Assembly: GCA_024180945.1 (NCBI GenBank)
Contig: JAKSGN010000041.1
Span: 2,976,001 to 3,040,000, forward strand
DNA: 64,000 nucleotides
Origin: Macrophomina tecta
Taxonomy: Eukaryota > Ascomycota > Dothideomycetes > Botryosphaeriales > Botryosphaeriaceae
Reading direction: 5' to 3'
Within the stretch, counting starts at the first letter, position 1, and every line of letters begins with the position of its first letter. Both the position numbers and the translations under genes were made by a program. The notes below the pieces were generated by a model that searched no databases, was not told the origin of the DNA, and saw only the letters and a program-made list of their open reading frames with translations. Below are positions 18,662-61,219 of the stretch, in pieces.

Positions 18662-18984
18662 TACTAAAAAAAATATTGGTGGTTCTAGACAGAAATGCTT
18701 GGTTAGATGGCATAAATTTGGGGCTGAATTGGGTATCGAAGGAATGAACCTTTTGATGTCGCCTTCTTGAGCGACGGTAAGTGAATATATCTACCTAAAC
18801 TGCTGCTAGCCCAATCTAGATGAGGTGTGACGTGTATCAGAATTCAAACTATAGTGTAACCGCTCAGAGTATTACCTCCTTATTTTAATGTATGGTGATA
18901 TGGGCATTAATAATTCATGCGTTCTAGAGCTATCCAGGAACCTCTCTTACACAACACCAACCGAGTCCGGAACAAGAATTTTCC

Positions 18985-22396: not shown

Positions 22397-23320
22397 TCAA
22401 GGCACGATCACGATGCGCTCTCCACCCTTCTCGCCCCAAATGTGCTCGACGTCATCGAGCTTCACGATGCGGAACTTCAGCGGCGCGATCCTGCCGGTAG
22501 CGATGGCGTCGATGACCTTGGGGCTCTGCTCGGCGAATTGGCTCATCTGCCAGGCGCCGGGGCCGGAGCCGCGCACGGTGATGTCCTTGCTGCGCAGGAT
22601 CTCGCCGGGCAGGTCGAGGGTCTTGTTGGCGGTGGTGCCGATCTGGACGTACTGGACGGGCTTGGTGGGCTTGAGGGACTGCAGCAGGTGCAGCGTGGGC
22701 GCGCCATACAGGAAGTCGAGCACGACGTCAGCGTCGGCAGCGGGCGCGTAGTCGGTCTGCGCGTCGTCTTCCTGCAGCTCGATGGTGGCGTCGAGCGCGA
22801 GGGCGGCGAGGCGCTCGGAAGGGCGAGCGATGCCGACGACACGGGTGGCGCCGAAGGCGCGCAGGACGGACACGGCAGCGGTCCCGGAGACAGTGGTGGC
22901 ACCGACGATGACGGCGGTAAAGGCGGGCGGCAGATGGGAGGTGCGGGTGGCCAGGGCCATCCAGCTGGCCATGACCGGGTTCACCAGGCCGGCCACCTGG
23001 ATGGGGTCTGCGCCGGCGGGCAGCGGCGTGGTGGCGGCGGCAGGCACGTTGATTCGCTCCGCCATCGAGCCGCCCGACGGAGTCATGGCGGAGAAGTAGA
23101 CGAGCGTGCCGTCGTCCAGTGTGCCCACGCCATCGCTGCCGGGGATGTGTGGCAGCGTCTTGGCGCTGTAGTGCAGGCCGGCGGCGCGGGCACGCACGAG
23201 GTTGTGGAGGCCGGCAGCGAGCAGCTTGACTTGCACGTGGCCAGCAGCTGGGGCGGCCGGGGCGGGCACGTCGATGCACTTGGGCGGCTCGCCCCAGGCA
23301 GCTACCTGAGCCTGCTTCAT
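22397..23320 (-). CDS. Medium-chain (MDR) quinone reductase-type oxidoreductase
   Basis: Zinc-independent NAD(P)H-dependent oxidoreductase, 307 aa from ATG 23320 (MKQAQVAAWGEPPKCIDVPA); an in-frame ATG at 23419 would add 33 residues that lack family resemblance. The N-terminal GroES-like domain contains HVQVKLLAAGLHNLVRARAAG and HIPGSDGVGTLDDGTLVYF. No zinc-ligand Cys cluster is seen. The Rossmann part has AVIVGATTVSGTAAVSVLRA and RVVGIARPSERLAALA, and a late VVLDFLYG/VQYVQIG segment. It lies head-to-head with the NRPS-like gene across 1.24 kb. In terrequinone biosynthesis an MDR reductase (TdiC) acts beside an NRPS-like enzyme of the same architecture, so a tailoring role on the NRPS-like product is a reasonable guess. 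Confidence 0.85.
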   Translation of the reverse strand: MKQAQVAAWGEPPKCIDVPAPAAPAAGHVQVKLLAAGLHNLVRARAAGLHYSAKTLPHIPGSDGVGTLDDGTLVYFSAMTPSGGSMAERINVPAAATTPLPAGADPIQVAGLVNPVMASWMALATRTSHLPPAFTAVIVGATTVSGTAAVSVLRAFGATRVVGIARPSERLAALALDATIELQEDDAQTDYAPAADADVVLDFLYGAPTLHLLQSLKPTKPVQYVQIGTTANKTLDLPGEILRSKDITVRGSGPGAWQMSQFAEQSPKVIDAIATGRIAPLKFRIVKLDDVEHIWGEKGGERIVIVP

Positions 23321-24160
23321 GATGGTGCGTATCTGGATCGGTCGGAGGAGCCGGCGGACGGTGGTGGGCGGCATGCGAGTCGGCGGCGATGGATTAGTTC
23401 GATTTCCCCCATTCTCCACGTCCTTTAAACGTCACCCAAGCGGCCCGGAGCTGGCCCAGCGTGGGTGGGCGGCGCGAGGAGGGCCGGCATGCCGCATGCT
23501 TCGGCGTGTAGCTGCGCGCGAGAGCGACGCGTTGTGCACGAGTTGTGTCGTGGACAGTTGTGCTGCCGGGGCCGCGATTCGCGCGCACCAGCCCCGGCCA
23601 ATCACGGGCGGCCGGCGGAAAGACGGCGGCGTGCTATTCGCTGGTCTCCCGCGCGCTGCCCGGCCCGGCTGCAGCGGCGCCTCACCTTGTGTGCACTTGC
23701 GGCCTTCTGCACCGCCTCCATCTCGACTCTCCCCCGTGCCGAGTCGGGCCAGCGAGCTGCGGACCGCTGAGCCCCGTCTTCCTGGATAATCGCGTCCGCA
23801 TGCCTGTCCCGGCACGTGGCATGGCCCCGGGCATGCGGTTGCCGGTCAACCATGCAACACTTGCCCTGGACTTCGCCTGAGTCGCGGTGCGCCACCGCAC
23901 TCGCGCAGAAATGCGCGGTGCCCGGTTGAGCTCCGGGAGATCGACTCCTGGTCCCTTGGCGTGCTTGCTCCTGCAAAGCACCGGCAAGCCTGGAGATCCT
24001 CGTGGTGCCTATCTGCCGCACGAATCAGATCCCGCTGCCTCCGCCAGACTGCCGAGCTCACGACTCAATTGCATCGTTCGGTATCAGGCCCCCTCGTCTC
24101 CTCTGCCGAGATCCCGCTCTTCCCCCCTACTTTTCCGTTGAGCCTCCTGCGCACGTTTTC

Positions 24161-24176
24161 CAGCTCCCGGGAGCTG
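24161..24176. promoter_or_regulatory. 16-bp perfect palindrome CAGCTCCCGGGAGCTG, candidate regulator site
   Basis: Perfectly self-complementary, 382 bp upstream of the NRPS-like ATG. With its left flank (TTTC) it matches 19 of 20 bases at 44247-44266 upstream of AROM. Dyad-symmetric sites are usual for dimeric Zn2Cys6 factors; a factor of that class lies at 51.2-53.3 kb. The binding role is inferred. Confidence 0.6.
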
Positions 24177-24474
24177 ATTGCAGCGATAGGCCGCCCAAAC
24201 CACAATTGTACTTTGTCGCAGAAAACTGCCGACGCCGATCTGCCCTATTTCGCCATGCTCATTGCAGACACCTACTGGTGGCTTCAGGAAAAGACTTCAC
24301 ACGAACTACACAGCGATGGGACTACTTTCTCCCGGACGCCTCATTCGTGTTGCTGGTGGGTGGTGGCCGCCTCGTAGCTGAAACACCAATGGCCCAGCAG
24401 TATCTACGCATCTGTAGCATCCCGAGTCTATCCGCGAGCAGCGCTCTGCAAGAGAAACTCACCTCCAGTTGCTC

Positions 24475-24484
24475 ATATATATAC
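24475..24484 (+). promoter_or_regulatory. TATA element of the NRPS-like gene
   Basis: ATATATATAC about 75 bp upstream of the ATG at 24558. An out-of-frame ATG at 24493-24495 lies between them and opens a frame overlapping the coding start. Transcription is expected to begin downstream of it, otherwise it would act as an overlapping upstream frame. Confidence 0.5.
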
Positions 24485-24557
24485 CACTTGACCATGCATC
24501 TCCAAGTTCAGACTCCAGCCCTCAGACTCCAGTCTCCAAAGCACATCCAACTTCACA

Positions 24558-27467
24558 ATGCTTTCCCTCGTTCAAGACTCCGCAAAGCACCCGACCGGCT
24601 TCGTCCCGGTCGAGGCCCCCACCGAGACTGCCACCACAGATGCCCCCGCCGTCACCAGCCTCGTCGGCCTGCTCCAGCAGGCGGCCAAGAACAACAGCGG
24701 CGGCATCCTGACCTATCCTCCCGGCACCATCAACGACCCCAGTGCCCTTACTACCCTCACCTATGCTGATCTCCTCACAACAGCCCAGGCCAATGCAGCA
24801 TCACTGCGCAGCAGTCTGGCAAGCCGCGGCCTCACCCTCACACCCGGCAAGGTTGTCCTCATTCACTTCGACAGTGCAGTCGACTCCATCCCATGGTTTT
24901 GGGCGGTCATCCTCGCCGGTGCTATCCCCGCCATTTCGGCGCCCAACATGCTGAGCAACAATGCAACCGAGGTCAAGAAGCACCTGGCCCATCTCTACAA
25001 GACCCTTGATCAGCCCATCGCCCTGACTCGTCGCGCTCTGCTGGAACCCTTCCATGTCCAGGACGCCGAGTCCCGCATCGACATCCTCAGCGTTGAGGAG
25101 CTGGCTCCCGCAGCCGCTGAGACCACCGAGCTTCCCTCGCCCGCTTCTTCCGACTTGGCGGCATTGATGCTCACTTCGGGCAGCAGCGGCAACTCGAAGG
25201 CCGTCCGTCTCACCCATGGCCAGATCCTTGCTGCCATCACCGGCAAGGCTCAGTTCGCGAAGCCCAACCCCAGCAAGCCCTACCTCAGCTGGATCGGCAT
25301 GGACCACGTTGCCAACCTGACTGAGATCCACCTGCACGCTCTTCTCCTCGGTCTCCCGCAGATCCAGATCTCTGCCGCAGACCTTCTCGTCGACCCGGTC
25401 CAGCTGCTGAACCTCATCAGCCGCCACAAGGTCCAGCGCACCTTCGCCCCCAACTTCTTCCTTGCCAGACTCCGCCGCGCGCTGGAGTCCGGCTCCGTTC
25501 CCACCCTCGATGCTGACCTGAGCCTCGAGTCGCTCGAGTGGCTGGGCTCCGGTGGTGAGGCCAACGTCACCGAGGTCTGCGCTGCTATTCAGCCTCTCCT
25601 GGAGAAGTACGGTGCCCGCAAGGATGTCATTGTTCCTGGCTTCGGTATGACCGAGACCTGCGCTGGCTGCATCTACAACCGCCAGTGCCCGAGCTACGAC
25701 AAGGAGAAGCGCTACGAGTTCACCTCTCTGGGATCCTGCATCCCTGGTGCGCGGATGCGTGTCACCAAGATGGTCAGCGGCGGTCAGAGCGTTGAAGCCG
25801 GGCCCAACGAGATTGGTGACCTGGAGGTCAGCGGTGATGTCGTCTTCAAGGGCTACCACAACAACCCGGAGGCTACCGCCAGGGCCTTCACCCAGGATGG
25901 CTGGTTCCGCACTGATGATCTGGCTTTCATTGATGACCGCGGCTTCCTCAACCTGAGCGGCCGTACCAAGGAGGTCATGATCGTCAACGGTGTCAAGTAC
26001 CTCCCTGTCGAGCTTGAGGCTGCTCTCGAAGAGGCTGAGATCCCTGGAACCACCCCTACCTACTTCTGTGCCTTCTCCACCCTCGACGCATCTCTCGACA
26101 CCGAGTGCGTTGTGGTCATCTATCTGCCCTCTTACGACGAGAACGACGATGCTGCTCGCTTCGAGACGCAGAGCACCATCATCCGCATTGCCAGTATGCA
26201 CACCCGCTCGCGCCCGCGCGTCGTGCCGCTCCGCAAGGACCAGCTCCCCAAATCAACGCTCGGCAAACTCTCCCGGGCTAAGCTTAGGGCAGCTCTCGAG
26301 AAGGGCGAGTACAAGGCACAGATCGCCGCCAACGACCTCGCCATCGCGAGACACAGGCAAACGATTCGCGGAGAGCCAGAGTCGGAGACGGAGGCCATCA
26401 TCCTCGAGGAGATCCGCTTCCAGCTGGGCCTCCCGGCTGAGGACGACTTCGGCGTCAACGACTCCATCCTCGCCATGGGCGCCTCGTCGATGGACCTCAT
26501 CGCCGTCATCAACCGGCTGAAGCCGCGCCTCGGCCTGGCGCAGCCCATCCCGCTCATCGACATCCTCAACAACCCAACCGCCAAGGGTCTCACGACCCGC
26601 ATCGCCGAGACCAACGCTGAGGGCCGCGAGTACAATCCCGTCATCAAGCTCAACTCGTTCGGGCACAAGACGCCGCTCTGGCTGATCCACCCCGGTGTAG
26701 GCGAGGTGCTCGTCTTCCTCAACCTTACCAAGTACATCACCGACCGCCCCGTGTACGGCATGCGCGCCAAGGGCTTCAACGCTGGCGAGGAGCCCTTCAC
26801 CACCATCGACCAGGTCCTGACCTGCTACGTCGAGCACATCAAGAAGACGCAGCCGCAGGGTCCCTACGCCCTCGCCGGCTACTCCTACGGTGCCATGCTG
26901 GCCTTCGAGATCTCCAAGCGCCTCGAGGCCCTCGGCGACGAGGTCCGCTACTGCGGTAGCTGGAACTTGCCCCCCCACATCAAGTACCGCATGCGCCAGC
27001 TCGACTGGGAGGAGTGCATCGCCAACTTGTTCTACTTCGTCTCCCTCATCGACCAGGACGTCGCGCTCGACCAGTGCCCGAAGATCCGCGCCATGCCCGA
27101 CCGCAAGGACGCCGTCAAGCATATGCGCGCCCTGGCTGATCCGGTCCGCTGGGAGGAGCTGGGCCTCGATGAGGACGACTACCTCAACTGGGCTGACGTC
27201 GCGACGAAGCTGCAGGGCATGGCTCGCGACTACGAGCCCAGTGGCAGCATCAAGTGCATGGATGTGTTCGTCGCCGTGCCGCTGAAGGCTGTTGCGAAGG
27301 ATCGCAAGGACTGGGTCGAGAATAAGTTGAGCCATTGGAAGGATTTCGTCCGCGAGGATGTCAGGTTCCATGATGTTGAGGGCGAGCATTACACTATGCT
27401 CAACCCGACCTATGTCGCGGGCTTTGCTGATAGGCTGCGCAAGGTGCTGGCTGAGCGTGGTGTGTGA
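24558..27467 (+). CDS. NRPS-like A-T-TE synthetase, arylpyruvate (furanone/terphenylquinone) type
   Basis: Single exon, 969 aa, domains A (about 35-590), T (about 605-690), TE (about 705-965), no condensation domain. Family members (TdiA, MicA, AtrA, ApvA, BtyA, PgnA) activate an aryl-alpha-keto acid and the TE dimerises two units. A-domain motifs: LMLTSGSSGNSKAVRLTHGQ (A3), FGMTETCAG (A5), GWFRTDDLAFID (A7), GRTKEVMIVNGVKYLPVELE (A8) and LPKSTLGKLSR with the A10 lysine. WIGMDHVANLTEIHLHALLL in the substrate region matches the keto-acid activating group. T domain: MGASSMDLIAVINRL with the phosphopantetheine serine. TE: GYSYG nucleophile elbow, SWNLPPHIKYRMRQLDW, and a late His in VEGEHYTML. 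Phenylpyruvate is the likely substrate given the prephenate dehydratase nearby; the product is not predictable. Confidence 0.93.
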   Translation: MLSLVQDSAKHPTGFVPVEAPTETATTDAPAVTSLVGLLQQAAKNNSGGILTYPPGTINDPSALTTLTYADLLTTAQANAASLRSSLASRGLTLTPGKVVLIHFDSAVDSIPWFWAVILAGAIPAISAPNMLSNNATEVKKHLAHLYKTLDQPIALTRRALLEPFHVQDAESRIDILSVEELAPAAAETTELPSPASSDLAALMLTSGSSGNSKAVRLTHGQILAAITGKAQFAKPNPSKPYLSWIGMDHVANLTEIHLHALLLGLPQIQISAADLLVDPVQLLNLISRHKVQRTFAPNFFLARLRRALESGSVPTLDADLSLESLEWLGSGGEANVTEVCAAIQPLLEKYGARKDVIVPGFGMTETCAGCIYNRQCPSYDKEKRYEFTSLGSCIPGARMRVTKMVSGGQSVEAGPNEIGDLEVSGDVVFKGYHNNPEATARAFTQDGWFRTDDLAFIDDRGFLNLSGRTKEVMIVNGVKYLPVELEAALEEAEIPGTTPTYFCAFSTLDASLDTECVVVIYLPSYDENDDAARFETQSTIIRIASMHTRSRPRVVPLRKDQLPKSTLGKLSRAKLRAALEKGEYKAQIAANDLAIARHRQTIRGEPESETEAIILEEIRFQLGLPAEDDFGVNDSILAMGASSMDLIAVINRLKPRLGLAQPIPLIDILNNPTAKGLTTRIAETNAEGREYNPVIKLNSFGHKTPLWLIHPGVGEVLVFLNLTKYITDRPVYGMRAKGFNAGEEPFTTIDQVLTCYVEHIKKTQPQGPYALAGYSYGAMLAFEISKRLEALGDEVRYCGSWNLPPHIKYRMRQLDWEECIANLFYFVSLIDQDVALDQCPKIRAMPDRKDAVKHMRALADPVRWEELGLDEDDYLNWADVATKLQGMARDYEPSGSIKCMDVFVAVPLKAVAKDRKDWVENKLSHWKDFVREDVRFHDVEGEHYTMLNPTYVAGFADRLRKVLAERGV

Positions 27468-30400
27468 GTGATTGGCGCGGTTATTTCCTTTCCCTTTTTC
27501 TTTTATCCCCACTCGATCTTGGGAATCCTGATGTTTAGTATTTACGGTCTTTGTTCTCTTCTTTGGATTTCTCGCGTAGACTACGTATATCATGCAGTGT
27601 TATTTTAGAGATTAGATGAGTCTTTCAATTTACTTGCTATTTCAACAACGATCCTGGAGCAAACGATATCCTCCGCATCTCATCACTGCAAGTCTTTTGG
27701 GCCTTAACTTGAATGCAAAAAGAACGACGCGGCTGGTTTAAGTTTCTTGGCATCAGGGATCGACAGAATCCATTTGGGCCTCCGTTCTTTGCCGGACAGA
27801 CAGATTGTGAGGCGCTGTCATAGTCTCGGCCTTAGCTTGGTGTGCTTATTGCGGCAGATTAGCAGTTCAGCAACGGCCCACAAAGAGGCGTAAAGATCGA
27901 TGTCCCTTGGGCCCATGCTCCCGTACTCCTTTTGCACTGAGGCCCCCGTTCCTCCGCTCAAGAATCATCGATCCTGACACCTCGAAAGTCTTAAACGAGA
28001 AACGAGATTCATTAGACCCACAAAGATCATCCTTTCCACAGGAATATCAAGATTGCTTGTGCCTCGGTACATTTGCACCGTTATTCTCTCGACGCTCGGG
28101 AGGTTTATTGACCAAGACCTTGGCTGGCGCGACGGACCGATCCGACGAACGCTCAAGCGGAGGGACCGCAGGAGGACTCCGACAACTCAAAAGGGGAAAG
28201 CAGCGCGAGCTCCACATATCTGGCCTCAGCCTCATCGTTCGAGCTATGAGCCTCTGATTTTGCTGACTCGATCAAGCCCGATGCCGCGCGTTGGACTGTC
28301 CACCGATGGGTTTGCCCGAGCTGTGCGTCTTCACGTGTGGCTGGCGCTCCGCGCTTACGCGGCACTGGTGTTGCCCGAACCGAAGACAAGCGGGACCCAC
28401 GGGCTATCTCTGCACGGCTTCAGCCTTATCCTACCCGACAAGAGGCTCTGCGCCATCTGAGTCGTGGTGTTCCTACCCGCAGTTATTTGTCCGAAGCCCC
28501 ACATTGCCCACGATATGAGACACGCCGTACATATTCCTCCGAATCGAGTAAAATGCCGCCTAATCGTGCTGCATACCTCTGGGTCTCTCCCACGTGCGAG
28601 CAGGAGGGCGCAGCCGTTGGACACGACTCCCGTCTCCCTCCCCACCACGCCCTCGCGCTGTCGTGTCTGCGGCGCTACCGGCACAGAGACACATGTGGTG
28701 GAGTCTTTTCCAGCAGCTGCGTCTGGGCCCCTGCATCGCCCGTTCGCCAGCAGCTCTTCCATCCCCTTCCATCCCATCCCATCCCATCCCATCCCAGCTA
28801 TCAGCTCCCAGCACCGGCTGACTCGAGCCGCAATCGCGCGCCGCAGGCAACGGCGAGCAGTGCGCCGCGCCTATTGCTTGCGCTCCAGAGAAACTCTCCC
28901 ACTTCAACGGCCCGGGTGGCGTCGGGCCGTGCCTCATCCACCTTCGACCCTCCCTCTCGCTTAGACCAACAACTTGCTCAAGCGTCTGATATACGAGTTT
29001 AAGAAAAAAGAAAGAAAAGAAAAGCAAGTGCATCCCGCAAAGGCCCGCCGGCGCCTCCCGTACGCTTCCGGGGCGCGCGGCCGCAAACTGGGAGAGCGGG
29101 CTGATCATTTTCGCGTGCTGGAGCAGCAGGGCTGGGGCGGTAGGCCACCCCGATCGACGCGGTGCGAGCTGATACGTTTTGCTGAAGCGAGTAATACACA
29201 AAAGTTGTTTATTTTTACCTTCTTTTTTTTTTTTTTTTTTTTGGTTGGGGCGTGGGGGTATAGTAATCAAGTCGCTATACGAGTCAGATTGGCCTGTGTT
29301 TGCCCTACGTGTAGGCTTGGCGAGATGATTGTACCGAGATGGTTGTGCTTTTGGGTCTGAATTGTTCTTATCGGCAGCGTCGGGGTTGGCCTGGGCGAAA
29401 CACCCCAGAGGAGTGTGGGAGATTAGAGGGGTGTGCTGCGCTACTATCGGAGATTGCAAAGGAGGAAGTCATGTAATGCTGCTGAGCTGCTGATGTTAGA
29501 GATAGTGTAAGCTGATGGCATGCGGCTTGATGGACAGTGTCTGTCAATTATGTTATTGGGGGAAGGTAGGGGGGAGGTGGAGGTTTCAGTTATGGTGTGT
29601 GTGCAAACATTGTTGCGGTTTACTAGGTTGTTGGTGACTTGTACGGTACGATAACGGCATATGGCTTAAGCCAACGGTGCTAAGGATTGTCGTATGAGGC
29701 TTCACTTTTCTTGACGGTGTAGAAGGAGAATGTAGTTGGCAGAAAAGAAGACGCAACCGAAGCTTTACCTGCGGTCTTTGGCTTTGCACTTGGTATTGAG
29801 ATTCCAAAGTCGTCGTTTGGATTCAGGTCGTTTCCTATCGACAAGAAAAAATACAGGATCTGGAGCGCAAAGTCGCTACACATATATAGATCTCCTTACA
29901 AGCTGAAAGGCGAGAATGATGCCGAGAACGTTTCCTTGCTCAAACTCGCACATCGCTATCGCTTGATCTTTTTTTGCGGCACGGCTCGATAAAAACCTCC
30001 CACTTCAGGAAAAAGCTTCGGGCGAAGTCTCCGCCTGAGACCCAACAGAAAGCTTCAGGAAAGGACTATTCAACGCAGTTAATAACAGATGAATTTACAA
30101 AAATCTAAAAAGAAAGACCGTCAATGACTTTGTGTTGAAGTTCGTTAGGCCGCACGCAGCATCTACCCAAAATGGAATGTCGGATTGGGCTTAGTCCCAC
30201 TTCATGTGTACATAGTCTCCGCCAGTTGCTGAGCCCCTTAGCGGGTTAATCCATTATGATTTCAACACTTTGTATTATGAGAATAAACAGAACGGCTCAT
30301 TGCCTTTCATCCAAGTGCTCGGCCTGAAGTCAAGTTACTGTGCTTGTGAAGCGGTAAAAGAAGCGGATAATGGTATTAATCTTTTGGTAGATTCGAAAAG

Positions 30401-32415
30401 CTCCATGTTACTCTTTGATAGAGACTTTCTATAATAAAATGAAGCTTTTGTGTGCAAGGTTGGCGTCTCTTTGGATTATCAAAAGAATTATTCCATTTAT
30501 TTTACGGACCATTCACCGCTTAGTTCAAAGTGGTGACCTTCTATCCACTGTGCAGAATGCCCATCGGTAAATGATGACAGATTTTGATATACAGGCTTTG
30601 GAGCGATGCAGACGTTCTGACCTGGCCAACACCAGGAAAGTAAATAAATGGAGGAATTGACTCAAACTTGTCAGTGAGGAGACCCAAAGTGCTCCCCCCT
30701 CCTTTAACCCGACATATAGACTGGTCAAATCTCAATATCGTGAGATTTCTAGTCCGATACTACCGCCTTAAATTCAAGAGCTGATTTTCCACATTTTTGA
30801 AAAAGGCTTATCTCATTCCCAGGTGGCGAACAACTCATCTTCGACGTGTGAGAAGCATCAGCGTCATCCACGATGTGTTTCCTCCCCTGGCTTGCTCGAT
30901 ACTTCCAACATTCGATTATGTCTAACGCATGTCCTGGGAGGATAGCTCGTAACTTTTGTTTTGGGTCTAGGGTGGAATTCTCTCAGTATCCTTGCGTATG
31001 GCAATCAAGAGTAGTCTTTTGAATACTCGCGAACCCCGTTCAGAGCCCCCCGGAGCCATACAGAAAAACCAAGTGGGCTTCGCTGTTCAAGCGGTCTACT
31101 CTGCCTTCTAGATCTAGGTAAGCTTATTTTGTATGCATCGCAAGGCGGACGGGGCTCTCAGATGTAATATCAAGATCATCTTCAGCGAAATAGTGCTCAA
31201 TCCAACCCCGTTTTTGTGATGTGCCCCGAAATCTGTCGTGGCTTGTCATTGAAACAGCTCCTTCGTCGGCGACGATTTCAGGTATACGTTTATATCCAAA
31301 GCGGAATGGATGGTTGCTTTCAAAACACTCATGCATCAAGCGATGGCCGAGAGTAGTGCTGGGAGAGAAAGTCACCAGTGTCGACCTACTCCTTGCACTA
31401 TTACTTGGGCCTCGAGAGGATCGGGAACAATTGTTGCTCATCATTCACATTTTCCTTAGAGAACACAAAATCGGTGACAGAGCCACATCCTAGTGAGAAC
31501 CAGATGTCTGCACCTGAAGAGGCCCAGCAACATGATGGAAATATACTGGTGGCTTGAGCGTGTTTCCACAGGTCATCCATAGATTTTTTCAGATGAATCC
31601 TTGGAGAACAAACTCAAAACGATGCTTTCATTGACATGATCAGCTATGAAGAGCCATCAGCCAAAATAGAGCTCCGTAGAATGCGTCAACAAAGTCGCGT
31701 TTGAACGTCGATATTCGTTTAAAATACTCATGGGCGAAAGAGACGTAGGTAGCTTGGGCATTATAGATATTGGAAAGCCTTCTGCAAAAGACATCTTCTC
31801 GCATAGAGCGTTCAGTTTCCACTAACCCATGGAGACGATGTAAAAGCCCGGGAAGCAGAACAGCCTTTTCGGGATGACTCCTCCATGCAAATTCCATCCT
31901 CGATTATTCTAACTATCTTAGGGACATAACTCATTTCTGCGATTCAATAGTTATGTGGAAACGTATCAGATCGGTGGCTTCTCCGTTATTCTAAAAGCCA
32001 TGCACCCGGAACCTCCCATTTTGGCGGCTCTTCCCAAATATTCTCGGCATATTCCACTGACATTGTTCTTCAAGTCTGTCATAATGTGCAACAAAAAAAA
32101 GGCGGTAATGCTCGCCATTTATCACGACAAATCACAGTTTTCCTTGGGAATCGCATCTCGAATACAATGTTCACCCGGAGCCAACTTGACTGAAATGAGG
32201 TTGTTCCCGAATACTTCATTGCAGAAATAAATGACAGCTTCCAATAATATTCAATATTTGGTGCGCTGTGGGATGACATGAACATAACAACCTGATGTAG
32301 TCTTTAATCTAAAACCTTATGATGACCCCAAAATTTCCGACAAAAAAAAGAAAGAAAGAAACCGAAAGCAGAAACAATTGAATACGCAGAGTTTTCACGG
32401 ACAAGCGGGAGCCAT
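27468..32415. other. 4.9-kb stretch without a supported gene
   Basis: Only short frames without family resemblance. It contains a pentamer microsatellite near 28769-28797, a 20-base T run at 29223-29242, and an AT-richer part from 29.9 to 32.3 kb. Minus-strand frames at 31640-31897 and 31124-31444 look faintly protein-like, broken by stops, and might be a gene relic; I cannot name it. Confidence 0.45.
28769..28797. repeat. (CATCC)n microsatellite
   Basis: About six tandem copies of a 5-bp unit in a non-coding stretch. Confidence 0.8.
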
Positions 32416-36016
<3,601 letters not shown>

Positions 36017-37360
36017 ATGTCAACCTTTGGCCAACACTTCCGTGTCACCACGTATGCATCCCGCGATCCGCCTGCGCGACGCCCTCGCTCACCCATGCTA
36101 ACTACACCAATGCCTCCAGATATGGCGAATCGCATTGCCGCTCCGTCGGTGCTATCGTCGACGGATGTCCTCCGGGCCTACGCCTCACCGAGACGGATAT
36201 TCAGCCGCAACTGACACGACGCCGCCCCGGTCAAAGCGCCATCACCACGCCACGCAATGAGAAAGACCGCGTCGAAATCCAGTCGGGCACGGAGTTCGGC
36301 GTCACTCTGGGCACGCCTATCGGCCTGCGTGTGATGAATGAGAACCAGCGCCCCGGAGACTATGGCAACAAGACGATGGATCTGTATCCCAGGCCTAGCC
36401 ACGCTGATTGGACGTACCTGGAGAAATACGGCGTCAAGGCGAGCAGTGGTGGGGGCAGGAGCAGCGCACGGGAGACTATTGGTAACGAGCCCTCCTTATT
36501 GGCTTGCCTTAGAAATTGCTTTTCCTGCGATAAGGGCAATCGCTGACGGGGGACATGTAGGCCGCGTAGCAGCAGGAGCCATTGCCGAGAAGTACCTGAA
36601 GGAGGCATGTGGGGTGGAGATTGTCGCCTTCACTGCCTCGATTGGCAATGAATTCCTCTTCCCGCCAACTGCCGAACACCCAAACCTCTCCACCAACCCT
36701 GACTTCTTGAAGCTGGTTGATGGCATTGACCGGGAGACAGTTGACAGCTTCCTGCCTGTGCGCGCTCCGGACACCGACGCCAATAGCCGCATGGAAAAGC
36801 TGGTCGAGAAGTACAAGGCTAGCCAGGACAGCATTGGCGGCACTGTGGCTTGTGTCATCAGAAACGTCCCCACTGGCCTGGGTGAGCCGTGCTTTGACAA
36901 GCTTGAAGCGAAGCTTGCCCATGCCATGCTGAGCATACCTGCGACCAAAGGGTTTGAGATTGGCTCTGGATTCGGCGGCTGCCAGGTCCCGGGATCTGTG
37001 CACAATGATCCTTTCGTCAAAGCAGAGTACGTCAACGGAGAGGCGGGCTCGTCGAAGGTCCCCCGCCCTCGTCTGACAACCAAGACGAACAATTCCGGGG
37101 GCATCCAGGGCGGTATCAGCAACGGCGCGAATATCTACTTCCACGTGGGATTTAAGCCTGCCGCCACCATCGGTCAAGCTCAAACGACAACGACGTACGA
37201 AGAGGAAGAAGGTATTCTAGAAGCCAAGGGCAGACATGACCCATGCGTTGTACCCAGAGCAATTCCAATCGTTGAAGCCATGGCCGCGCTGGTAATTATG
37301 GACGCCTTTATGGCACAACAAGCAAGGCAAAGCGCAAGGAATCTTCTGCCAACTCCGTAG
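36017..37360 (+). CDS. Chorismate synthase
   Basis: Converts 5-enolpyruvylshikimate-3-phosphate to chorismate with reduced FMN; fungal forms carry an intrinsic flavin reductase. Three exons: 36017-36051, 36120-36481 and 36561-37360, introns 68 and 79 bp, phases consistent, 398 aa. The start [20 protein letters not shown] is the canonical N-terminus and fixes both the start and the first splice. Other motifs: [39 protein letters not shown], the active-site [40 protein letters not shown], and [20 protein letters not shown] near the end. All signature residues look intact. Its 3' end is only 52 bp from the convergent prephenate dehydratase. Confidence 0.95.
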
Positions 37361-37412
37361 ACTTGATGGTAGATTATATTTCGTAGCCCAGAATATATAT
37401 CGCATCCTTCAC

Positions 37413-38511
37413 TTACTGAGGCAACTTGCTCTCCCAACTCCCCAGCCAACGCCATCCCGGCACCACCCTCCCCAGTTCTACCAACGCAGCCTCCACATCC
37501 GCCGGGGCCTTCCCGCCGAGCACCAGCTCGACCATAAAAACCCCTCTCCCAAGCCTTCCCCCCCACGCTCGGTCTCGTCACAACGTTTGCCACAGGCACC
37601 GCATACCTCGCAAGCGCGCCCAACGCCTCCGCCACCCTCTCCGGCTCCGCCAACGTAAATGCCACCAATGCGCTCCACCTCCCCGCTTCTCCCTCGCCCT
37701 GCGCACTCCTCGCAACCATCTCGTCGACCCTGCCGCCCGCCCTCCTCAGCACAAAGAACCTCGTCGTATTCCCACTGAAGTCGCTCACATCCTCGACCAG
37801 GACATCCAGCCCATGCACGCGCGCCGCCGCCACGCTCGCGACGGCCGCACTCTCGCCCCTCACATCCTCGCTCACGAGCCTCGCCGCGGCGCTCGTGCTG
37901 TCGGCATCGACCCGCTTCGCCCTGCCCAACGGCCCGCTGCCGAGCGCCTTGGTGCACTGGCCCCAGGCCTGCGGGTGGCTGTACAGCGTCTTGACGTGCG
38001 CGAGGCAGGGGCTGCCCTTGGCGCTGGCGTTCTGGCTCGGGCAGCGGCGGCCGAGCAGCGCGTGCCGGACGGGCACGAAGGCCTCGCCGCAGATGAGCAC
38101 GTCTGGGTGCGACGACGCCGCCGCGGCGAGCAGGTCCCACGTCGGCACGACGCCGCCGTTGGACGAGTTTTCAATGGGGACGACACCGTGCGTGTAGGCG
38201 CCGGATTGGACGCCGGCGAAGACGGAGGCGATGGAGGCGGTGGGGTGGAGTGGAGAGGAGGTGGGGAAGAAGGAGAGGGCGGCCTGGGGATTGACGCGTG
38301 GTGTCAGAGGTAAATTATTTTTTTTTCCTTATTCGTTTTTGCATAACTCCCTCAGGTGATTGGAGTTTTCATGGAGAGCGGATCCTAAAGCTGTGGGGGG
38401 AGGGATGCGCGGGGAACGAACCTGATGCGTGTATGTACCCTCCGGGCCGAGGAAGAGGACTTTGTCTTGGATGGCCATTTTGTTATATTCGACGGTGGTC
38501 TGGACGCCCAT
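37413..38511 (-). CDS. Prephenate dehydratase with degenerate ACT domain; apparent 1-bp frameshift
   Basis: Converts prephenate to phenylpyruvate. Exon 1 38511-38422 (MGVQTTVEYNKMAIQDKVLF, then LGPEGTYTHQ) and exon 2 from 38283, after a 138-bp intron. Catalytic-domain motifs: VVPIENSSNGGVVPTWD, CLAHVKTLYSHPQAWGQC and the essential DFSGNTTRFFVL. The ACT region (SALVAFTLAEPERVAEALGA, then VPVANVVTRPS) lacks the usual GAL and ESRP Phe-binding motifs. After TRPS the reading frame must shift by one base within a C7 run (37558-37564) to reach the conserved end GVFMVELVLGGKAPADVEAA and WLGSWESK, stop at 37413-37415. Unshifted, the frame runs into unrelated sequence. This is either a sequencing error in the homopolymer or a real mutation; no normal-sized intron explains it. 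AROM lies upstream on the same strand. Confidence 0.88.
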
Positions 38512-39036
38512 GGTGGAAGAGGAGAGTTTTAACGTAAAAGATGACAGACCTCGAGAGGCATGTTGTCGGAGCTATATATGTTCATATCAGATCCCCGCCG
38601 CACTAACCCGGCGAGTTTGGACCCGAGTGGGCCCGATGTCTCAAGCAAGTTTATCGCGGGGAATTTCTTTTTATCAACAGGAGCTGCTCTTGCACCGACG
38701 CTTCCCATAGGTACTGGAAACGGCAATGCATTCTACCACTTAATTGCTTGACTCAGATTAGGAAACCCCAGCCGAATCGCGTAATAATCCACCAAACTAC
38801 CTATCTCCGCCCCGTACACGCTCCTACAAGGTCGAGACTCGATTTCAGAAGTGTTACCACAGCGAGTGCACATATACGTGCGAGGAGTAGTAGCATATAT
38901 GACTCCTCAGGGCGTGAATATTCAGACAGACTAGTAATATTTATGTCCTGCCGAATGATTCCACTGCAAGTAAATACCTTTGCAGCCGACATCGTACTCA
39001 CCGTTCCATTCCCCGCACCCCATCCACCTATACACC
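38512..39036. promoter_or_regulatory. Gap between AROM 3' end and prephenate dehydratase start
   Basis: 525 bp. GGAGCTGCTCTT at 38680-38691 is identical to 44260-44271 in the AROM promoter, 169 bp upstream of the prephenate dehydratase ATG. A further CGGAGCT at 38567-38573 sits next to TATATA. No gene. Confidence 0.45.
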
Positions 39037-45940
<6,904 letters not shown>

Positions 45941-48900: not shown

Positions 48901-50694
48901 CCTCGGCGGCTCCTCCCCGCTCCCCCGCTCCTTCAAGCGGCGCACCGGCTTTGTCCACCAGCAAGACGTGCACCTGGCTACTTCGACCGTTCGCGAAGCG
49001 CTCCTCCTCGCCGCCACGCTGCGGCAGCCGGCCTCGGTCCCAGCGGCCGCGAAAGAGGAGTACGTCGATGCGATCCTCGCGCTGCTCGAGATGCGCTCGA
49101 TCGCTGACGCCGTAATCGGGATGCCGGGCAGCGGGCTGAATCTCGAGCAGCGCAAGCGCGTAAGTATCGGCGTCGAACTTGCGGCGCGCCCAGACGTCTT
49201 GCTTTTCCTGGATGAGCCGACTAGTGGCCTGGATGGCGGGTCGGCTGCGCGCATTGTAAGGCTGCTGCGGAAGCTGTCGACGGATGCTGGGTTAACTATT
49301 CTGTGCACCATCCATCAACCGGCAGCTGAGCTGATGCGCGAGTTTGATGAGTTGCTTTTGCTTGTGCCGGGCGGGCACACTGCATACGTTGGGCCACTCG
49401 GCAAGGATTGCGGTCGCGTGCTTGAGTACTTTGGAAGGCATACACGCCCCTGTGAGGAGTCTGAGAACCCGGCTGAGTATTTCCTGGGCGAGACGGTAAA
49501 TCCGAACGTCGACTGGCCGAAACTATGGGAGAAATCGGCCGAACGGGCACAGCTGCAGCGGACGCTGAATGGCGGGCTAAGCGGCAGCAGTGGCGAAAGC
49601 TCCAAAGCTAACAGCACTGACAATGGCAGTGAGGCTGTGGTATCAGAGGAAGAAGACCCAAACAAGTACGCGGCGTCGCTGGGAACCCAACTGCGCGTGG
49701 TGACAGCGCGAGCCTTCACCAACTACTGGCGCGACCCGGATTATGTGCTGGGCAACCTCCAGCTGAATCTTTGGATGGCGCTCATGAACGGTTTGACGTT
49801 CTTGCAGCTCGGGAGCTCTCTTACCGACGCACGCAACCACGTCTTCTCGCTCTTCGTCGCCGTCATCACTGGACCCGTCATCAGTCTTGCCGCCATGCCG
49901 CGCTTCGTCGGACTGCGTGACCAATTCCTCGCGCGCGAAAAGGATGCCAACACATACCGATGGCAGGTTTTCGTAGCCAGTGCCGCAGCAGTTGAACTTC
50001 CGTGGGCGTTGTTGGGCGCTGTGGTGTACTGGATTCTGTGGTACTATTCTGTCGGTTTCCCGTATGCCGCGGGCCGCGCAGCGTACGCTTTCCTCATGTA
50101 TATCCTGTACACGGTCTTCGTTGCTGGCCTGTCCCAGTTCACCACGGCCTGCTTCCCGACGGTTGCCGCCGCTCAGGTGGCGAACGGGTTCATCTGGCTC
50201 ATCGTCAACACGTTCAACGGTCCGCTGTCGCCACCACCCCTGACGCCCCGTGGCTGGCGCTGGATCTACAACGTCTCGCCGCTGTACTACTTCATCGATG
50301 GCATGGCTTCCAACGTGGTGCATGATCAGAAGATCACTTGTACCTCGGCTGAGACAAGTGCTTTCTTTGCGCCCGACGGTGTGACGTGCGGCGACTACGC
50401 AGCGTCTTACTTCTCTTTCCCCAACGCGACGGGATACCTGGTTGATCCGTCAGCAATTGGACAGTGCGAGTACTGCCAATTCTCAGTTGGTGATGAATTC
50501 GTAAGTCATCTTAGAAACTACTCCGTCTCTGATGAAAACTAACCTGAGATGCCATTCAGATCCGGCAATACGAGTTTTCGTACTCTGATAGAGCTGACAA
50601 TGTGGGTATTTTCATCGGGTTCATCGCGCTAAACTTCGTCTTGATCTTTGGCGCTACGTATTTTCTCTTTATTCGCAAGTGGAAGAAAGCGTAG
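45941..50694 (+). CDS. PDR-type full-size ABC (ABCG) exporter
   Basis: Plasma-membrane drug/metabolite exporter, order NBD-TMD-NBD-TMD. Nine exons: 45941-46108, 46163-46472, 46563-46809, 46906-47971, 48034-48299, 48356-48654, 48716-48771, 48833-50500, 50560-50694; about 1404 aa with consistent phases. NBD1: Walker A VGQPGSGCTTFLKIMA, signature VSGGERHRVTVAEAL, and Walker B region ISIDNPTRGLDSASA with Asn in the Glu position as usual in PDR proteins. TMD1 has about six hydrophobic segments ending RYLNPMYYAYEGI. NBD2: MGMSGAGKTTLLNTL, LNLEQRKRVSIGVEL, LLFLDEPTSGLDGGSA and the His switch TILCTIHQPAA. TMD2 ends with FIGFIALNFVLIFGATYFLF. Position between AROM and the Zn2Cys6 regulator suggests export of the cluster product or self-protection; this is inference. 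Confidence 0.93.
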
Positions 50695-51175
50695 AGGGTT
50701 GAGCAATAGCAAGCCGAGTTGCGATATAATCCAAGGAGTTGTACGAGTTTTAAGGAAGGAGGTAATGAAGATGAAGTGTCGGAAGCACGTAATTGAGATA
50801 CCAGATTAGACGAAACGAGTCTTTTACTTTCTATTGCAGCTTCATGAGCCCACTCCGGTAGCACTGGGCGGTGGTGAGCGAGGACTATGGGACCACGAAA
50901 TAGAGATGGCGAGAGCCACGGTCAGCTGGAGAGACACAATTCCAAAGTTTGTCGGGCTTTTGTTACTTCATTCCCCTTTCCCTCGAAACTTTGAAGCGGT
51001 CAGTCAGCGCCTTCGTTGGATGCACGCATGTGTGACCACAACGAAGCCGATATCCAGACCAGGCCTGGATTTTGTTTTGGTTAAGGTCTTGGAGTACGTG
51101 AAGAAAAAGAGACTTGAGGTTTTGCCGTTATGGGAGATTTTGAGAAATCGGGGTTGCATCATTCTTCCACTACTC
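50695..51175. other. Convergent 3' gap, ABC transporter and transcription factor
   Basis: About 480 bp between two stop codons on opposite strands. No gene or repeat seen. Confidence 0.5.
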
Positions 51176-53290
51176 CTAAGCATCGAAACCCTCACATGAC
51201 CCATCCATAAGAACGTCCAGATCGGTAATATCAGTGAACAGCTCATCGATGCCATGCTGGTAATCGGGCCAGCTCGGCAATCCGACGATGTCCATCCAAC
51301 TCCACAAGTCCTGCTCGACTGCTGGCAGGGCACCATTGGGAGCGGCCATGTTGTCCTGGATTGCAATGTGTTGGCTCTGTTCCTCAAGCAGTGGCAACGA
51401 AGGGTGATTCGTCAAATCGCCTCGGGCATCCGGCGTGACGAAGGGCGACCCTATAGCATTCAACGCCACCGATGACGCCATTCCAGGAGCGTCGCCTCCA
51501 GAGTACGCAGCTGCTCCTTCGACACGGTGAGGCGCACTGGGTCCAGCCTCGGATATTTCCTTGGCTTTTTGGCTCTCCTCAGCCAACCGAACGAGGCGAT
51601 CAACGCGGTCACAGAGATCACGTCCAACGACAGCGAGGCGACCCACTGTGGCGATCCGGCCAGCCACAGTGTCAAATACGGCAATGGCTTTCGGGAAGTG
51701 CTGACGTGCGAGTCGAGAGTAGCGGCAGAGAGGGTAGGACAAGATAAAGCCAGCCATAGTCAGAACAGCATTCCACTGTGCATGATAGACCTCGCAGATG
51801 CCGTAGAGCAAGTCGTCGACGTGGAAGCTGTCAAAGATGGTAGCTGTCAGGGCAATGGCATGCTTGACCGCCATGGTGGCGTTGACGTCCACGCGCGGAC
51901 TGCGCACGGGTGTAAGTGAGCGGAAGGGAAAGCGGATATAGGCGCGGTAGAGGGTCATTAGGCTGTTGTGGTAATGGACCTTGAGCAGTGTCCTTTGCAG
52001 AGCTCGCACGGTTCCAGAGTCAGATATTGTTGAGATGCCATCTGTGTGTCCGGACTGTGCAATCGCGGTATCTGGGTCTAGGTTGACGGTTGAAAAGGGT
52101 TCGCTCTCCTGCAAGGAACGCTCCCAATCGCGGACGGGGCCGAGAGTCTCCGCAAGCATCTTTGCCTGGGCCTCCACAAGCGCCAGGGCTCCTTCTGGGC
52201 CAGGAGCTAGTTTGCGGCCGCTGCCATGGGTGCCCGACAGGATAGCGGCAGTGAGTCGGACAGCGTATGTGTGATAGCTCCAGGCGGGATCTTCCCTCGG
52301 CAGTGGGCACGAGATCTCAGACCAGTGAAAGGCTACAGGGCGCCTGAGAAGCGATGAGCACCTGTGATCAAGTTGGACGAGAGTCCACCATGTGCGACTA
52401 CAGAGGTCGGCATTGTCGCCTGACACAGGGCGATGCAAGTGGAGGGAATAGGCCATGCGCACCGCGGATCCAAGAAGGCTGTAGGCAGGTTTAAGATGGC
52501 CAGCATTGATGAGAAAGAGCGACATCAGCACGTGGCATTGCACGTCGGCCAGAGAGGGATCGAGCTCGAGCGAGCTGGTGGCCAGCAGTGTCCTGCAACG
52601 GGTGACGAGGTGGTAGCCGGCGAGAGACGCATCTGCACCGGCAGAGGGGGCAGGCAGGCCGAGGCCAAGCATGCGGTCCGATAGAGAGGAGCAGCAGGCA
52701 TGTTGGATCGCCAAAGCAATAGCAGCGCAGGCCAAGGGCGGAAGAGGCTGGTCCGGATGGGCATCGTGAGCGGCGGTCAGAGCGGCCAGGTCGAAGATCG
52801 GAACAAGCGGATACAGGCGGCGAGCAAAGAGACGCAGGAGAGCGGCTCGTTGAGAATGGGTGAGGGTTGGGTCCGAGTGGTCGTCGACGCGGGAGGGTTG
52901 GCTCAAGGCGCTGTACTGCGGAGGCGGGCTGTGGAGGACCAGCTCGGAGATGGAGGTGAAGTAGTCATTGATCCTCGAAGCGAACTCTGGGCTGGCGGCA
53001 GCTGGTGGAGTCGACTGCGGCGAGGGCTGCGGGACAGGGGTGCCGTCTCGCAGCTGGGCCGGTGGAGTGGCCGAGGACGCGTCGGAGGCTTGGTGGGAGA
53101 CGGACGAGGGAGCGGCAGGCCTGCTGGCCGGCTTGCTGGACGCGTAGACGCAGCGGCGTGGGCTCGTCTGGCAGCGCGCACACGGCTGCTGCCCGTTGCA
53201 CCGCACCCGGAACAGCCGGCAGTTCTCACACGCCTGTCTTACCCGACGTCGGCCTTTGGCGTGCGACGGCGACGAGAATGTGAGGAACAT
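51176..53290 (-). CDS. Zn(II)2Cys6 fungal transcription factor
   Basis: Single exon, 704 aa. The binuclear zinc cluster is at residues 20-46: CENCRLFRVRCNGQQPCARC plus QTSPRRC, spacing C-2-C-6-C-5-C-2-C-6-C, preceded by basic KGRRRVRQA. A Ser/Pro/Ala-rich linker follows. Residues about 145-450 are the fungal-specific regulatory domain (LLRLFARRLYPLVPIFDLAA, HVLMSLFLINAGHLKPAYSL, GSAVRMAYSLHLHRPVSGD, RTWWTLVQLDHRCSSLLRRP). The C-terminus is acidic (MDIVGLPSWPD, ITDLDVLMDGS), a possible activation domain. It ends the run of cluster genes and is the natural candidate for a pathway regulator binding the CAGCTCC-type palindrome; no binding evidence exists. Confidence 0.92.
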   Translation of the reverse strand: MFLTFSSPSHAKGRRRVRQACENCRLFRVRCNGQQPCARCQTSPRRCVYASSKPASRPAAPSSVSHQASDASSATPPAQLRDGTPVPQPSPQSTPPAAASPEFASRINDYFTSISELVLHSPPPQYSALSQPSRVDDHSDPTLTHSQRAALLRLFARRLYPLVPIFDLAALTAAHDAHPDQPLPPLACAAIALAIQHACCSSLSDRMLGLGLPAPSAGADASLAGYHLVTRCRTLLATSSLELDPSLADVQCHVLMSLFLINAGHLKPAYSLLGSAVRMAYSLHLHRPVSGDNADLCSRTWWTLVQLDHRCSSLLRRPVAFHWSEISCPLPREDPAWSYHTYAVRLTAAILSGTHGSGRKLAPGPEGALALVEAQAKMLAETLGPVRDWERSLQESEPFSTVNLDPDTAIAQSGHTDGISTISDSGTVRALQRTLLKVHYHNSLMTLYRAYIRFPFRSLTPVRSPRVDVNATMAVKHAIALTATIFDSFHVDDLLYGICEVYHAQWNAVLTMAGFILSYPLCRYSRLARQHFPKAIAVFDTVAGRIATVGRLAVVGRDLCDRVDRLVRLAEESQKAKEISEAGPSAPHRVEGAAAYSGGDAPGMASSVALNAIGSPFVTPDARGDLTNHPSLPLLEEQSQHIAIQDNMAAPNGALPAVEQDLWSWMDIVGLPSWPDYQHGIDELFTDITDLDVLMDGSCEGFDA

Positions 53291-57976: not shown

Positions 57977-58044
57977 TCTAGGATCGCTACTAGTTTATTG
58001 AAATTTTTGTGTTGTGTTGAATAACTTGAGTTCAAAGTGTGATG

Positions 58045-58098
58045 TTGGTGAGGAAGTGGACGGCTCGGTGGTTTGGACGGCTCGGTGGTGAAACACGT
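58045..58098 (-). repeat. Right 54-bp terminal inverted repeat of the Pogo element
   Basis: Complement of the left repeat, with the same tandem 15-bp units, followed by TA. Confidence 0.92.
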
Positions 58099-59586: not shown

Positions 59587-60364
59587 TATAACGGCAGCCT
59601 CTTCTACTAGACTTTAGAATCGCCTAGTAGGGTTAGGTAGCTAAAGGGTTTACCTTAAAGAATAAGAGAAGGGTAAAGAATTAGAACGATAGTAGTAATT
59701 ACGTAGTATATCGATACGCGATACGCGTTAGGCTTATTACCTCCAATAGGGCTGTATTAGAACTTTAAGTTAACTACGAAGGTTAAAGTACTATCTAATA
59801 AGTATATCTATATACTATAGGAAAATTATAGCAATCTAGATCGATATAGCTAGATTAAAGTAGCTAGATCAATAGTATTAAATTATTAATCTTAGATTAG
59901 GTTAATCTAGGTGGGCCCTATGGGTCCTACGTAACTCGGGCGCTAAAGCCCGTTTCCTGGAATCCGACTTCTATATTAGTTACGAAAGTATTCTACCGCT
60001 AGACTATTATTCCTTAGATTGTATAAGTTATCCGACTTTCTCCCGTCCGTTTCTCTTAGCTCGAAGCCGGTTTTCGGGATTCGTAACTTCTTTCTTATAG
60101 GCGTTCTTCCCCTACGGGAGTTTACCTAGTCTATATTCTCGTGGTCTTGCTATACCGCGTGGGCGTCGCTCTCGTGCGGGCTTCTATTACTATTTTATCT
60201 AGGCCCGTACGCGCCGTCTTCCCTTACGGCTAGTTTTCCCATGCGGGCGTGCTAGTAGTGCGGCTCTATTATTTTTATAGGTTTCTAGCTTCTGCGGTGC
60301 CTTTTCCCGTGCGGGCCTTCCGCCCGTAGGGTTATAAAGCCCTTATTCTCTAGGGTTTGTAATA
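59587..60364 (-). repeat. RIP-mutated LTR (3' LTR of Gypsy element B)
   Basis: 778 bp, alignable along its length with the unmutated solo LTR at 63197-63968; differences are largely G-to-A at TpG and C-to-T at CpA. Termini TATAACGG and GTAATA correspond to TGTAACGG and GTAACA of the intact copy. Confidence 0.9.
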
Positions 60365-60380
60365 CTATCCCCCCTCTTAA
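60365..60380 (-). other. Polypurine tract of Gypsy element B
   Basis: On the minus strand, TTAAGAGGGGGGATAG directly abuts the LTR. This fixes the element's orientation and identifies that LTR as the 3' one. Confidence 0.7.
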
Positions 60381-60469
60381 GGATCTTTGGCCCGAAGATT
60401 TATTTATTCGTTTATATCTTAGGCTTTCTTTGTTTTCTTATTTTCTTTTTTTACTATAAGCCTCCCGCC

Positions 60470-61213: not shown

Positions 61214-61219
61214 TAAGTT

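What the first reader, a model, noticed from the sequence alone, without database searches (positions are those of the whole stretch)
22397..53290. Shikimate-to-phenylpyruvate genes clustered with an arylpyruvate NRPS-like synthetase
Seen: DAHP synthase, pentafunctional AROM, chorismate synthase and prephenate dehydratase lie within 12 kb, flanked by an A-T-TE NRPS-like gene with an MDR reductase on one side and a PDR exporter with a Zn2Cys6 regulator on the other. Known: in fungi these shikimate genes are normally dispersed, and A-T-TE enzymes of this type (TdiA, MicA, AtrA, PgnA) use arylpyruvates. Inferred: a self-contained cluster that makes its own phenylpyruvate and turns it into a dimeric aromatic product. 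I know of no described cluster with this complete supply set.
Basis: partly seen in the sequence, partly recalled or inferred. Interest (0 to 1): 0.93.

Follow-up and report, generated by a model that had tools for sequence, protein, structure and literature searches.

The report
Second shikimate pathway inside fungal cluster
A plant-pathogenic fungus (Macrophomina) carries, beside an enzyme that probably joins two phenylpyruvate molecules, its own extra copies of nearly all the genes that make phenylpyruvate, one of which has lost the usual off-switch motif; related clusters described in two other fungi carry only the first of these genes.

Summary
Observation confirmed: MDR reductase, A-T-TE synthetase, DAHP synthase, chorismate synthase, prephenate dehydratase (PDT), AROM, PDR exporter and Zn2Cys6 regulator lie at 22397-53290. 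The genome is Macrophomina phaseolina or very near (AROM 98.8% to MS6). All four shikimate genes have further copies on other contigs; the C7 AROM is the ancestral one. Cluster AROM arose by duplication within Botryosphaeriales and keeps 506 of 530 near-invariant positions. Cluster PDT keeps its catalytic motif but lost the phenylalanine-binding GAL motif that 56 of 59 compared PDTs keep. The synthetase falls outside the TdiA-like clade and lacks the 4-hydroxyphenylpyruvate Asn. Corrections: chorismate mutase is not in the cluster (single copy, C37), so the set is not complete; and two known clusters, ascocorynin and allantofuranone, already carry a DAHP synthase. The window's PDT has a frame break near its end; another M. 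phaseolina record is intact. Substrate, product and co-expression are untested. New variant of a known kind.

The parts
22397..23320 (-). MDR (quinone-oxidoreductase-like) reductase
   Evidence: PF00107 below its cut-off; quinone oxidoreductases by sequence; a 65% paralogue lies on C5
24558..27467 (+). NRPS-like synthetase, A-T-TE, 969 aa, single exon
   Evidence: PF00501, PF00550, PF00975; code and motifs; ends
32416..33669 (-). DAHP synthase (Aro3-type by recalled likeness), open frame; probably one in-frame intron near the 3' end (by eye)
   Evidence: PF00793 317 bits; closest solved structure 6u8j; 78.8% to the C32 copy, 63.3% to the C7 copy
36017..37360 (+). chorismate synthase, probably 3 exons (by eye)
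   Evidence: PF01264 over both halves; 72.8% to the C2 copy over exon 2; start and last codons
37413..38478 (-). prephenate dehydratase with ACT domain; C-terminal end in another frame; ends counted by eye
   Evidence: PF00800; frames; intact homologue P0241; ACT motif lost
39129..44121 (-). pentafunctional AROM, intron 43257-43404
   Evidence: five activities by domain; 1598 of 1614 residues as P0121
45941..50542 (+). PDR-type (ABC-G) exporter, several exons; start counted by eye
   Evidence: PF01061 in two open frames, PF00005 in one
51176..53290 (-). Zn2Cys6 regulator
   Evidence: PF00172 and PF04082; ends
27468..32415 (.). gene-poor gap between synthetase and DAHP synthase
   Evidence: 6 open frames of 72-106 aa from this gap had no Pfam match at 0.1; the gap was not scanned in full

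Best explanation
A biosynthetic cluster with a private, partly rebuilt shikimate pathway. The extra DAHP synthase pulls carbon in, the extra AROM (five steps) and chorismate synthase carry it to chorismate, the housekeeping chorismate mutase makes prephenate, and the cluster PDT, which probably no longer binds phenylalanine as a brake, turns it into phenylpyruvate. The A-T-TE synthetase loads phenylpyruvate and its thioesterase joins two units into a cyclic dimer (quinone, furanone or dioxolanone core; a quinone fits the neighbouring quinone-reductase-like MDR protein best), which the PDR exporter carries out under control of the Zn2Cys6 protein. Shown: genes, second copies, AROM duplication within Botryosphaeriales, kept catalytic motifs, lost ACT motif. 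Inferred: flux, substrate, product, export, regulation.
For: Second copies of all four genes; C7 AROM is 88-91% to five named Botryosphaeriaceae proteins (90-91% to four of them), the cluster AROM 66-67% to those compared, and the cluster AROMs form their own clade within Botryosphaeriales with a long stem. 506 of 530 near-invariant AROM columns kept. PDT: NTTRF motif kept (NATRF in P0242), GAL replaced in both cluster PDTs P0241 and P0242, ACT fold still predicted and matched to PDT structures, several Phe-bound. Only the phenylpyruvate branch is duplicated: chorismate-binding enzymes were found once on C2 and once on C13, none in the window. Synthetase code V-A-T-L-S-G-A-G, Val first, no Asn at position 5 (rule from PMC10316625). 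Precedent: DAHP synthase co-expressed with AcyN; alfS beside AlfA; both synthetases use phenylpyruvate.
Against: No chorismate mutase in the cluster. No expression data. The synthetase is closer overall to rows with the TdiA-like code (A domain median 58.0%, TE 61.6%) than to the rest (49.0%, 54.3%), and position 5 is Leu (Phe in P0001), not Ile/Val; a Cytospora row inside the TdiA-like clade also has S-G at positions 6-7 (P0046). PDT frame break in this assembly. DAHP synthase shows no change that I could see at recalled regulatory residues (by eye). A 4.9-kb gap between synthetase and DAHP synthase. No tailoring enzyme seen apart from the MDR protein, itself a 65% paralogue of a gene elsewhere. 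A shared promoter motif was not convincing.
Confidence: 0.6

Rival explanations
1. The synthetase uses indole-3-pyruvate (terrequinone/asterriquinone type); the shikimate genes raise chorismate for tryptophan, and PDT's phenylpyruvate serves as amino acceptor for a transaminase elsewhere.
For: Overall similarity highest to TdiA-like rows; MDR neighbour, compare the quinone reductase TdiC of the tdi cluster.
Against: Outside the 30-row TdiA-like clade, SH-aLRT 100, quick tree; code S-G, not T-S, at positions 6-7; no extra anthranilate synthase type enzyme; no aminotransferase or prenyltransferase among the 30 open frames of the window scanned with Pfam (the window was not scanned in full).
Confidence: 0.12
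2. The shikimate genes and the synthetase are unrelated neighbours; the block serves another aromatic demand.
For: 4.9-kb gap; regulation untested.
Against: Two known clusters pair such synthetases with DAHP synthase; outside Macrophomina the nearest relative of synthetase, AROM and PDT is in each case an unnamed 'lgn' record, which hints at joint inheritance but does not show it.
Confidence: 0.12
3. A decaying duplicate block: the copies evolve fast and the PDT is already broken.
For: Long stem of cluster AROM (0.62) and PDT (1.75, where the placing is unsure); frame break.
Against: 506 of 530 near-invariant AROM columns kept; PDT intact in another record; TE domain 97% identical to that of P0001.
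Confidence: 0.1
4. Self-resistance: the product inhibits a shikimate enzyme and the copies are insensitive targets.
For: Duplicated housekeeping enzymes in fungal clusters are often resistance copies (recalled); both cluster AROMs carry unusual changes in the shikimate dehydrogenase domain.
Against: Four enzymes of one route, ending at the presumed substrate, fit supply better; loss of a feedback motif is not expected of a resistance copy.
Confidence: 0.06

Closest known systems
Ascocorynin cluster (acyN, Ascocoryne sarcoides; PMC9047271, abstract and passages seen)
   Same: A-T-TE synthetase near a DAHP synthase and a zinc-binding regulator, co-expressed; phenylpyruvate to polyporic acid
   Different: only DAHP synthase; the words chorismate and prephenate do not occur in its main text
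Allantofuranone cluster (alf, Allantophomopsis lycopodina; PMC12105029, passages seen)
   Same: AlfA makes polyporic acid from phenylpyruvate; DAHP synthase alfS, C6 regulator, a dehydrogenase
   Different: no other shikimate gene in its table; has a ring-cleavage dioxygenase and an O-methyltransferase, not seen here
Terrequinone cluster (tdi; as described in passages of PMC12105029 and PMC9047271)
   Same: A-T-TE synthetase, quinone reductase; supply enzyme in cluster (TdiD)
   Different: indolepyruvate; aminotransferase and prenyltransferase; synthetase here lies outside the TdiA-like clade
Plant type-II arogenate dehydratases (PMC10845154, passages seen)
   Same: duplicated, loosely Phe-regulated dehydratases thought to feed specialised metabolism
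   Different: plants, gene family, no cluster; here loss of control is inferred from sequence only
Phenguignardic acid (pgnA of Aspergillus terreus; toxins of Guignardia, Botryosphaeriales; PMC5566483, passages seen)
   Same: two phenylpyruvates joined by an NRPS-like enzyme; producers in the same fungal order
   Different: genetic origin in Guignardia not known in that paper; pgnA sequence not compared here

Membership tests
Non-reducing NRPS-like (A-T-TE) aryl-keto-acid synthetases | A, T and TE domains; no condensation domain matched | tested here: met
Non-reducing NRPS-like (A-T-TE) aryl-keto-acid synthetases | Val at code position 1 (keto acid) | tested here: met
   rule in PMC10316625; columns placed by motif and recalled GrsA positions
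Non-reducing NRPS-like (A-T-TE) aryl-keto-acid synthetases | T-domain Ser, TE GxSxG and His | tested here: met
Phenylpyruvate-specific members | Ile or Val at code position 5, not Asn | tested here: inconclusive
   Leu here, Phe in P0001; Asn in none of 121 rows, so the set holds no contrast
TdiA-like (indolepyruvate) clade | falls within the clade and shares its code (T-S at 6-7) | tested here: not met
   the clade's label rests on one NCBI name, P0032, and one clade row (P0046) has S-G too
acy/alf-type polyporic acid clusters | DAHP synthase near the synthetase, with a zinc-cluster regulator | tested here: met
acy/alf-type polyporic acid clusters | synthetase close to AcyN/AlfA | not tested
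   their sequences were not at hand
acy/alf-type polyporic acid clusters | co-expression; polyporic acid as product | not testable with these tools
   no expression or metabolite data
Feedback-regulated prephenate dehydratase | GALV-type Phe-binding motif in ACT domain | tested here: not met
   motif role in PMC10845154
Feedback-regulated prephenate dehydratase | catalytic TRF | tested here: met

The most novel reading that the evidence does not exclude
The fungus has rebuilt the seven-step shikimate route plus PDT as a second, co-regulated pathway inside a secondary-metabolite cluster, and freed its last step from phenylalanine feedback, leaving chorismate mutase as the one gate shared with primary metabolism.
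Probability: 0.45. Interest if true: 0.82.

Novelty: new variant of a known kind. Interest (0 to 1): 0.68.

Why it matters
Fungal clusters often carry one supply enzyme (recalled; two examples); a nearly whole primary pathway duplicated into a cluster, including the 1614-residue AROM, would be an unusually clear case of a secondary pathway taking over its own precursor supply. The pair of old and new enzymes in one genome makes it directly testable how feedback control is lost, and whether chorismate mutase is the control point. It also points to a likely aromatic metabolite of a crop pathogen; the listings of my literature searches showed no such compound for this species (listings only, open-licence papers).

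Tried and rejected
Shared promoter motif: CGG-N12-CGG occurs 16 times (both strands, overlapping palindromes counted twice) in 6.3 kb of cluster intergenic DNA, shuffle mean 3.5, and in 0 of 300 shuffles did any of 26 spacings reach 16; two flanks plus the gap hold 8 in 21 kb. But promoters of the five dispersed copies, of chorismate mutase and of the C30 synthetase hold 8 in 7.1 kb, cluster coding DNA 30 in 14 kb, and twelve other loci 81 in 72 kb, so it is only a weak lead. Hidden genes: six open frames of the gap 27.5-32.4 kb and four of 34.4-35.6 kb gave no Pfam match. PDT tree: the cluster PDTs sit on very long branches and their place is unsure, so no date was drawn from it. NCBIfam scores stay below the equivalog cut-offs for cluster and housekeeping PDT alike. 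DAHP synthase desensitisation: no change seen by eye at recalled positions; not tested on a structure. Literature: searches for shikimate, AROM, chorismate synthase or PDT in a fungal cluster showed no such case in their listings beyond the DAHP synthase of the acy cluster; the held library is open-licence papers only, and one search was broad (296 papers, 15 listed). PMC8336260 (Botryosphaeriaceae genomes; 12 of 24 passages seen) and PMC6941272 (Sclerotinia) were searched for terms and gave nothing on this cluster.

Selections made: AROM tree, 33 of 120 listed hits plus two own copies; synthetase tree, 57 of 120 plus the window; code count, all 120 plus the window; ACT count, the first 59 of 120 listed PDT hits; PDT tree, 28 of 120; AROM column count, the 91 of 118 hits over 1560 aa. 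The protein searches themselves scored only about 8000 candidates each and listed 120 of 965, 2373 and 536.
Full report
What is there. The window is G000:C35:2976001-3040000 of a 54.1-Mb fungal genome in 37 contigs. The cluster AROM is 98.8% identical over 1377 residues to a Macrophomina phaseolina MS6 protein (P0121) and the cluster PDT 98% to another M. phaseolina record (P0241), so the organism is that species or one very near. Between 22397 and 53290 lie, in order, an MDR reductase (-), an A-T-TE synthetase (+), DAHP synthase (-), chorismate synthase (+), PDT (-), AROM (-), a PDR exporter (+) and a Zn2Cys6 regulator (-). Further left are a condensin-subunit-like and a PLP-dependent enzyme gene; the frames scanned between them and the cluster had no Pfam match.

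Second copies. DAHP synthase: three in the genome (window, C7, C32). AROM, by its EPSP synthase domain: two (window, C7). Chorismate synthase: two (window, C2). PDT: two (window, C3). Chorismate mutase: one, on C37, by two different models. Chorismate-binding enzymes (which I read as anthranilate and aminobenzoate synthase): one each on C2 and C13. So the route to phenylpyruvate is duplicated into the cluster except for chorismate mutase, and the tryptophan branch point is not. The tool scores only the best candidates, so counts are lower bounds in principle.

Which copy is old. The C7 AROM is 90-91% identical to the Neofusicoccum, Diplodia intermedia, Diplodia seriata and Lasiodiplodia proteins (88% to Diplodia corticola), the cluster AROM 66-67% to those compared and 66.5% to C7. 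In a tree of 35 rows the cluster AROMs (window, MS6, unnamed P0122) form one clade with full SH-aLRT support, inside Botryosphaeriales (12 rows, 100) but outside the Botryosphaeriaceae housekeeping clade, on a stem of 0.62 (quick search, no bootstrap). The duplication therefore happened within the order, probably before or near the split of its families, and was followed by fast change. Cluster DAHP synthase is nearer to the C32 copy (78.8%) than to C7 (63.3%); cluster chorismate synthase is 72.8% to C2 over its last exon; cluster PDT (P0241) 48.2% to its counterpart P0256. For DAHP synthase and chorismate synthase no homologues of other fungi were fetched, so their dates are unknown.

Are the copies working enzymes. 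Of 530 columns that are the same in at least 90 of 91 full-length AROMs, the cluster protein keeps 506, with losses in all five domains; the most suggestive are two neighbouring changes in the shikimate dehydrogenase domain, changed in both species. PDT keeps its catalytic motif. In the window the end of the PDT gene runs in another frame than the rest; P0241 has the same conserved end in frame. This is left open as assembly error or strain difference.

The brake. PDT is normally inhibited by phenylalanine through its ACT domain; GALV and ESRP are named as ligand-binding motifs and TRF as the catalytic triad in PMC10845154 (passages, citing Pohnert 1999 and Tan 2008, which I did not read). Of the first 59 of 120 listed PDT hits, 56 have GAL at that place; the three without are the cluster PDT P0241 (EPERVAEAL), the relative's P0242 (EPAVVTAAL) and P0261 (QPASLANAL). 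The set was chosen by similarity to the cluster PDT. AlphaFold2 still predicts an ACT fold (mean pLDDT 90.2, 35-row alignment), and the best Foldseek matches are prephenate dehydratases, several solved with phenylalanine bound, together with GqqA, described there as a quorum-quenching acylase. The simplest reading is a PDT that keeps its fold and activity but is not shut off by phenylalanine. That is an inference from sequence.

The synthetase. It has A, T and TE domains with their active-site motifs. Its nearest listed relative is P0001 (89%, unnamed), then rows at 50-60% that include one named TdiA. In a 58-row tree it and P0001 stand outside the TdiA-like clade (30 rows, support 100; quick LG+G4 tree). 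Over 121 rows its code V-A-T-L-S-G-A-G is shared with 16 others; seven of these are in the tree and none of the seven falls in the 30-row clade. T-S at positions 6-7 marks 52 rows; but P0046 (Cytospora), within the clade, has S-G. PMC10316625 (passages) gives Val at position 1 for keto acids, Ile/Val at position 5 for phenylpyruvate and Asn for 4-hydroxyphenylpyruvate; here it is Leu. This argues against 4-hydroxyphenylpyruvate, mildly against indolepyruvate, and leaves phenylpyruvate as the most likely substrate, not a proven one. I placed the code columns by motif, from recalled GrsA positions.

Known precedents. In the ascocorynin cluster, acyN, a regulator and a DAHP synthase are co-expressed and AcyN makes polyporic acid from phenylpyruvate (PMC9047271, abstract and passages). 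The alf cluster has alfA (polyporic acid), alfS (DAHP synthase), a regulator, a dehydrogenase and others (PMC12105029, passages). So supply of shikimate flux within such clusters is known for its first step. The listings of four searches showed no fungal cluster with AROM, chorismate synthase or PDT, and the main text of the M. phaseolina genome paper does not hold the words shikim- or chorismate (PMC3477038, passages).

Distribution. Only protein-level evidence was available. The nearest relatives of synthetase (P0001, 89%), AROM (P0122, 78%) and PDT (P0242, 63%) outside Macrophomina are unnamed 'lgn' sequences on contigs of up to 46, 34 and 37 kb; whether they share a genome or contig is not known. 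The next AROM hit is at 65% and of housekeeping type in the tree. No M. phaseolina record was listed for the synthetase, although there was one for AROM and one for PDT; I cannot explain that.

Verdict. The likely function is a secondary-metabolite cluster with its own shikimate supply and a deregulated PDT, lacking only chorismate mutase. It extends a known theme (one supply gene) to nearly the whole pathway. Substrate, product, co-expression and feedback release remain to be shown.

Noticed in passing
about 37413-37540 (-): End of the PDT gene lies in a different frame from the rest; another M. phaseolina record is intact (P0241).
   Followed up: partly
G000:C5:2988370-2989296 (L032): A 65% paralogue of the cluster MDR protein lies between a zinc-finger and a kinase gene, so the MDR gene too may be an extra copy of a dispersed gene.
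   Followed up: partly
L028 (G000:C30:885500-895400): A second synthetase-like gene, 35-36% identical to the window's, with a ketopantoate-reductase-like gene nearby.
   Followed up: no
intergenic regions of the cluster: CGG-N12-CGG direct repeats above shuffle expectation, but not clearly above other promoters.
   Followed up: partly
P0121 positions 1348-1349: His-Asn of the shikimate dehydrogenase domain, near-invariant in 91 AROMs, changed in both cluster AROMs.
   Followed up: no
16901-18790 (-): Long open frame that looks to me like a transposase; no Pfam match at 0.01.
   Followed up: no
58001-64000: AT-rich flank (GC 0.36-0.46) right of the cluster.
   Followed up: no
No M. phaseolina record near 100% was listed for the synthetase although one was for AROM and one for PDT; the database may lack it or hold it in a different length.
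   Followed up: no
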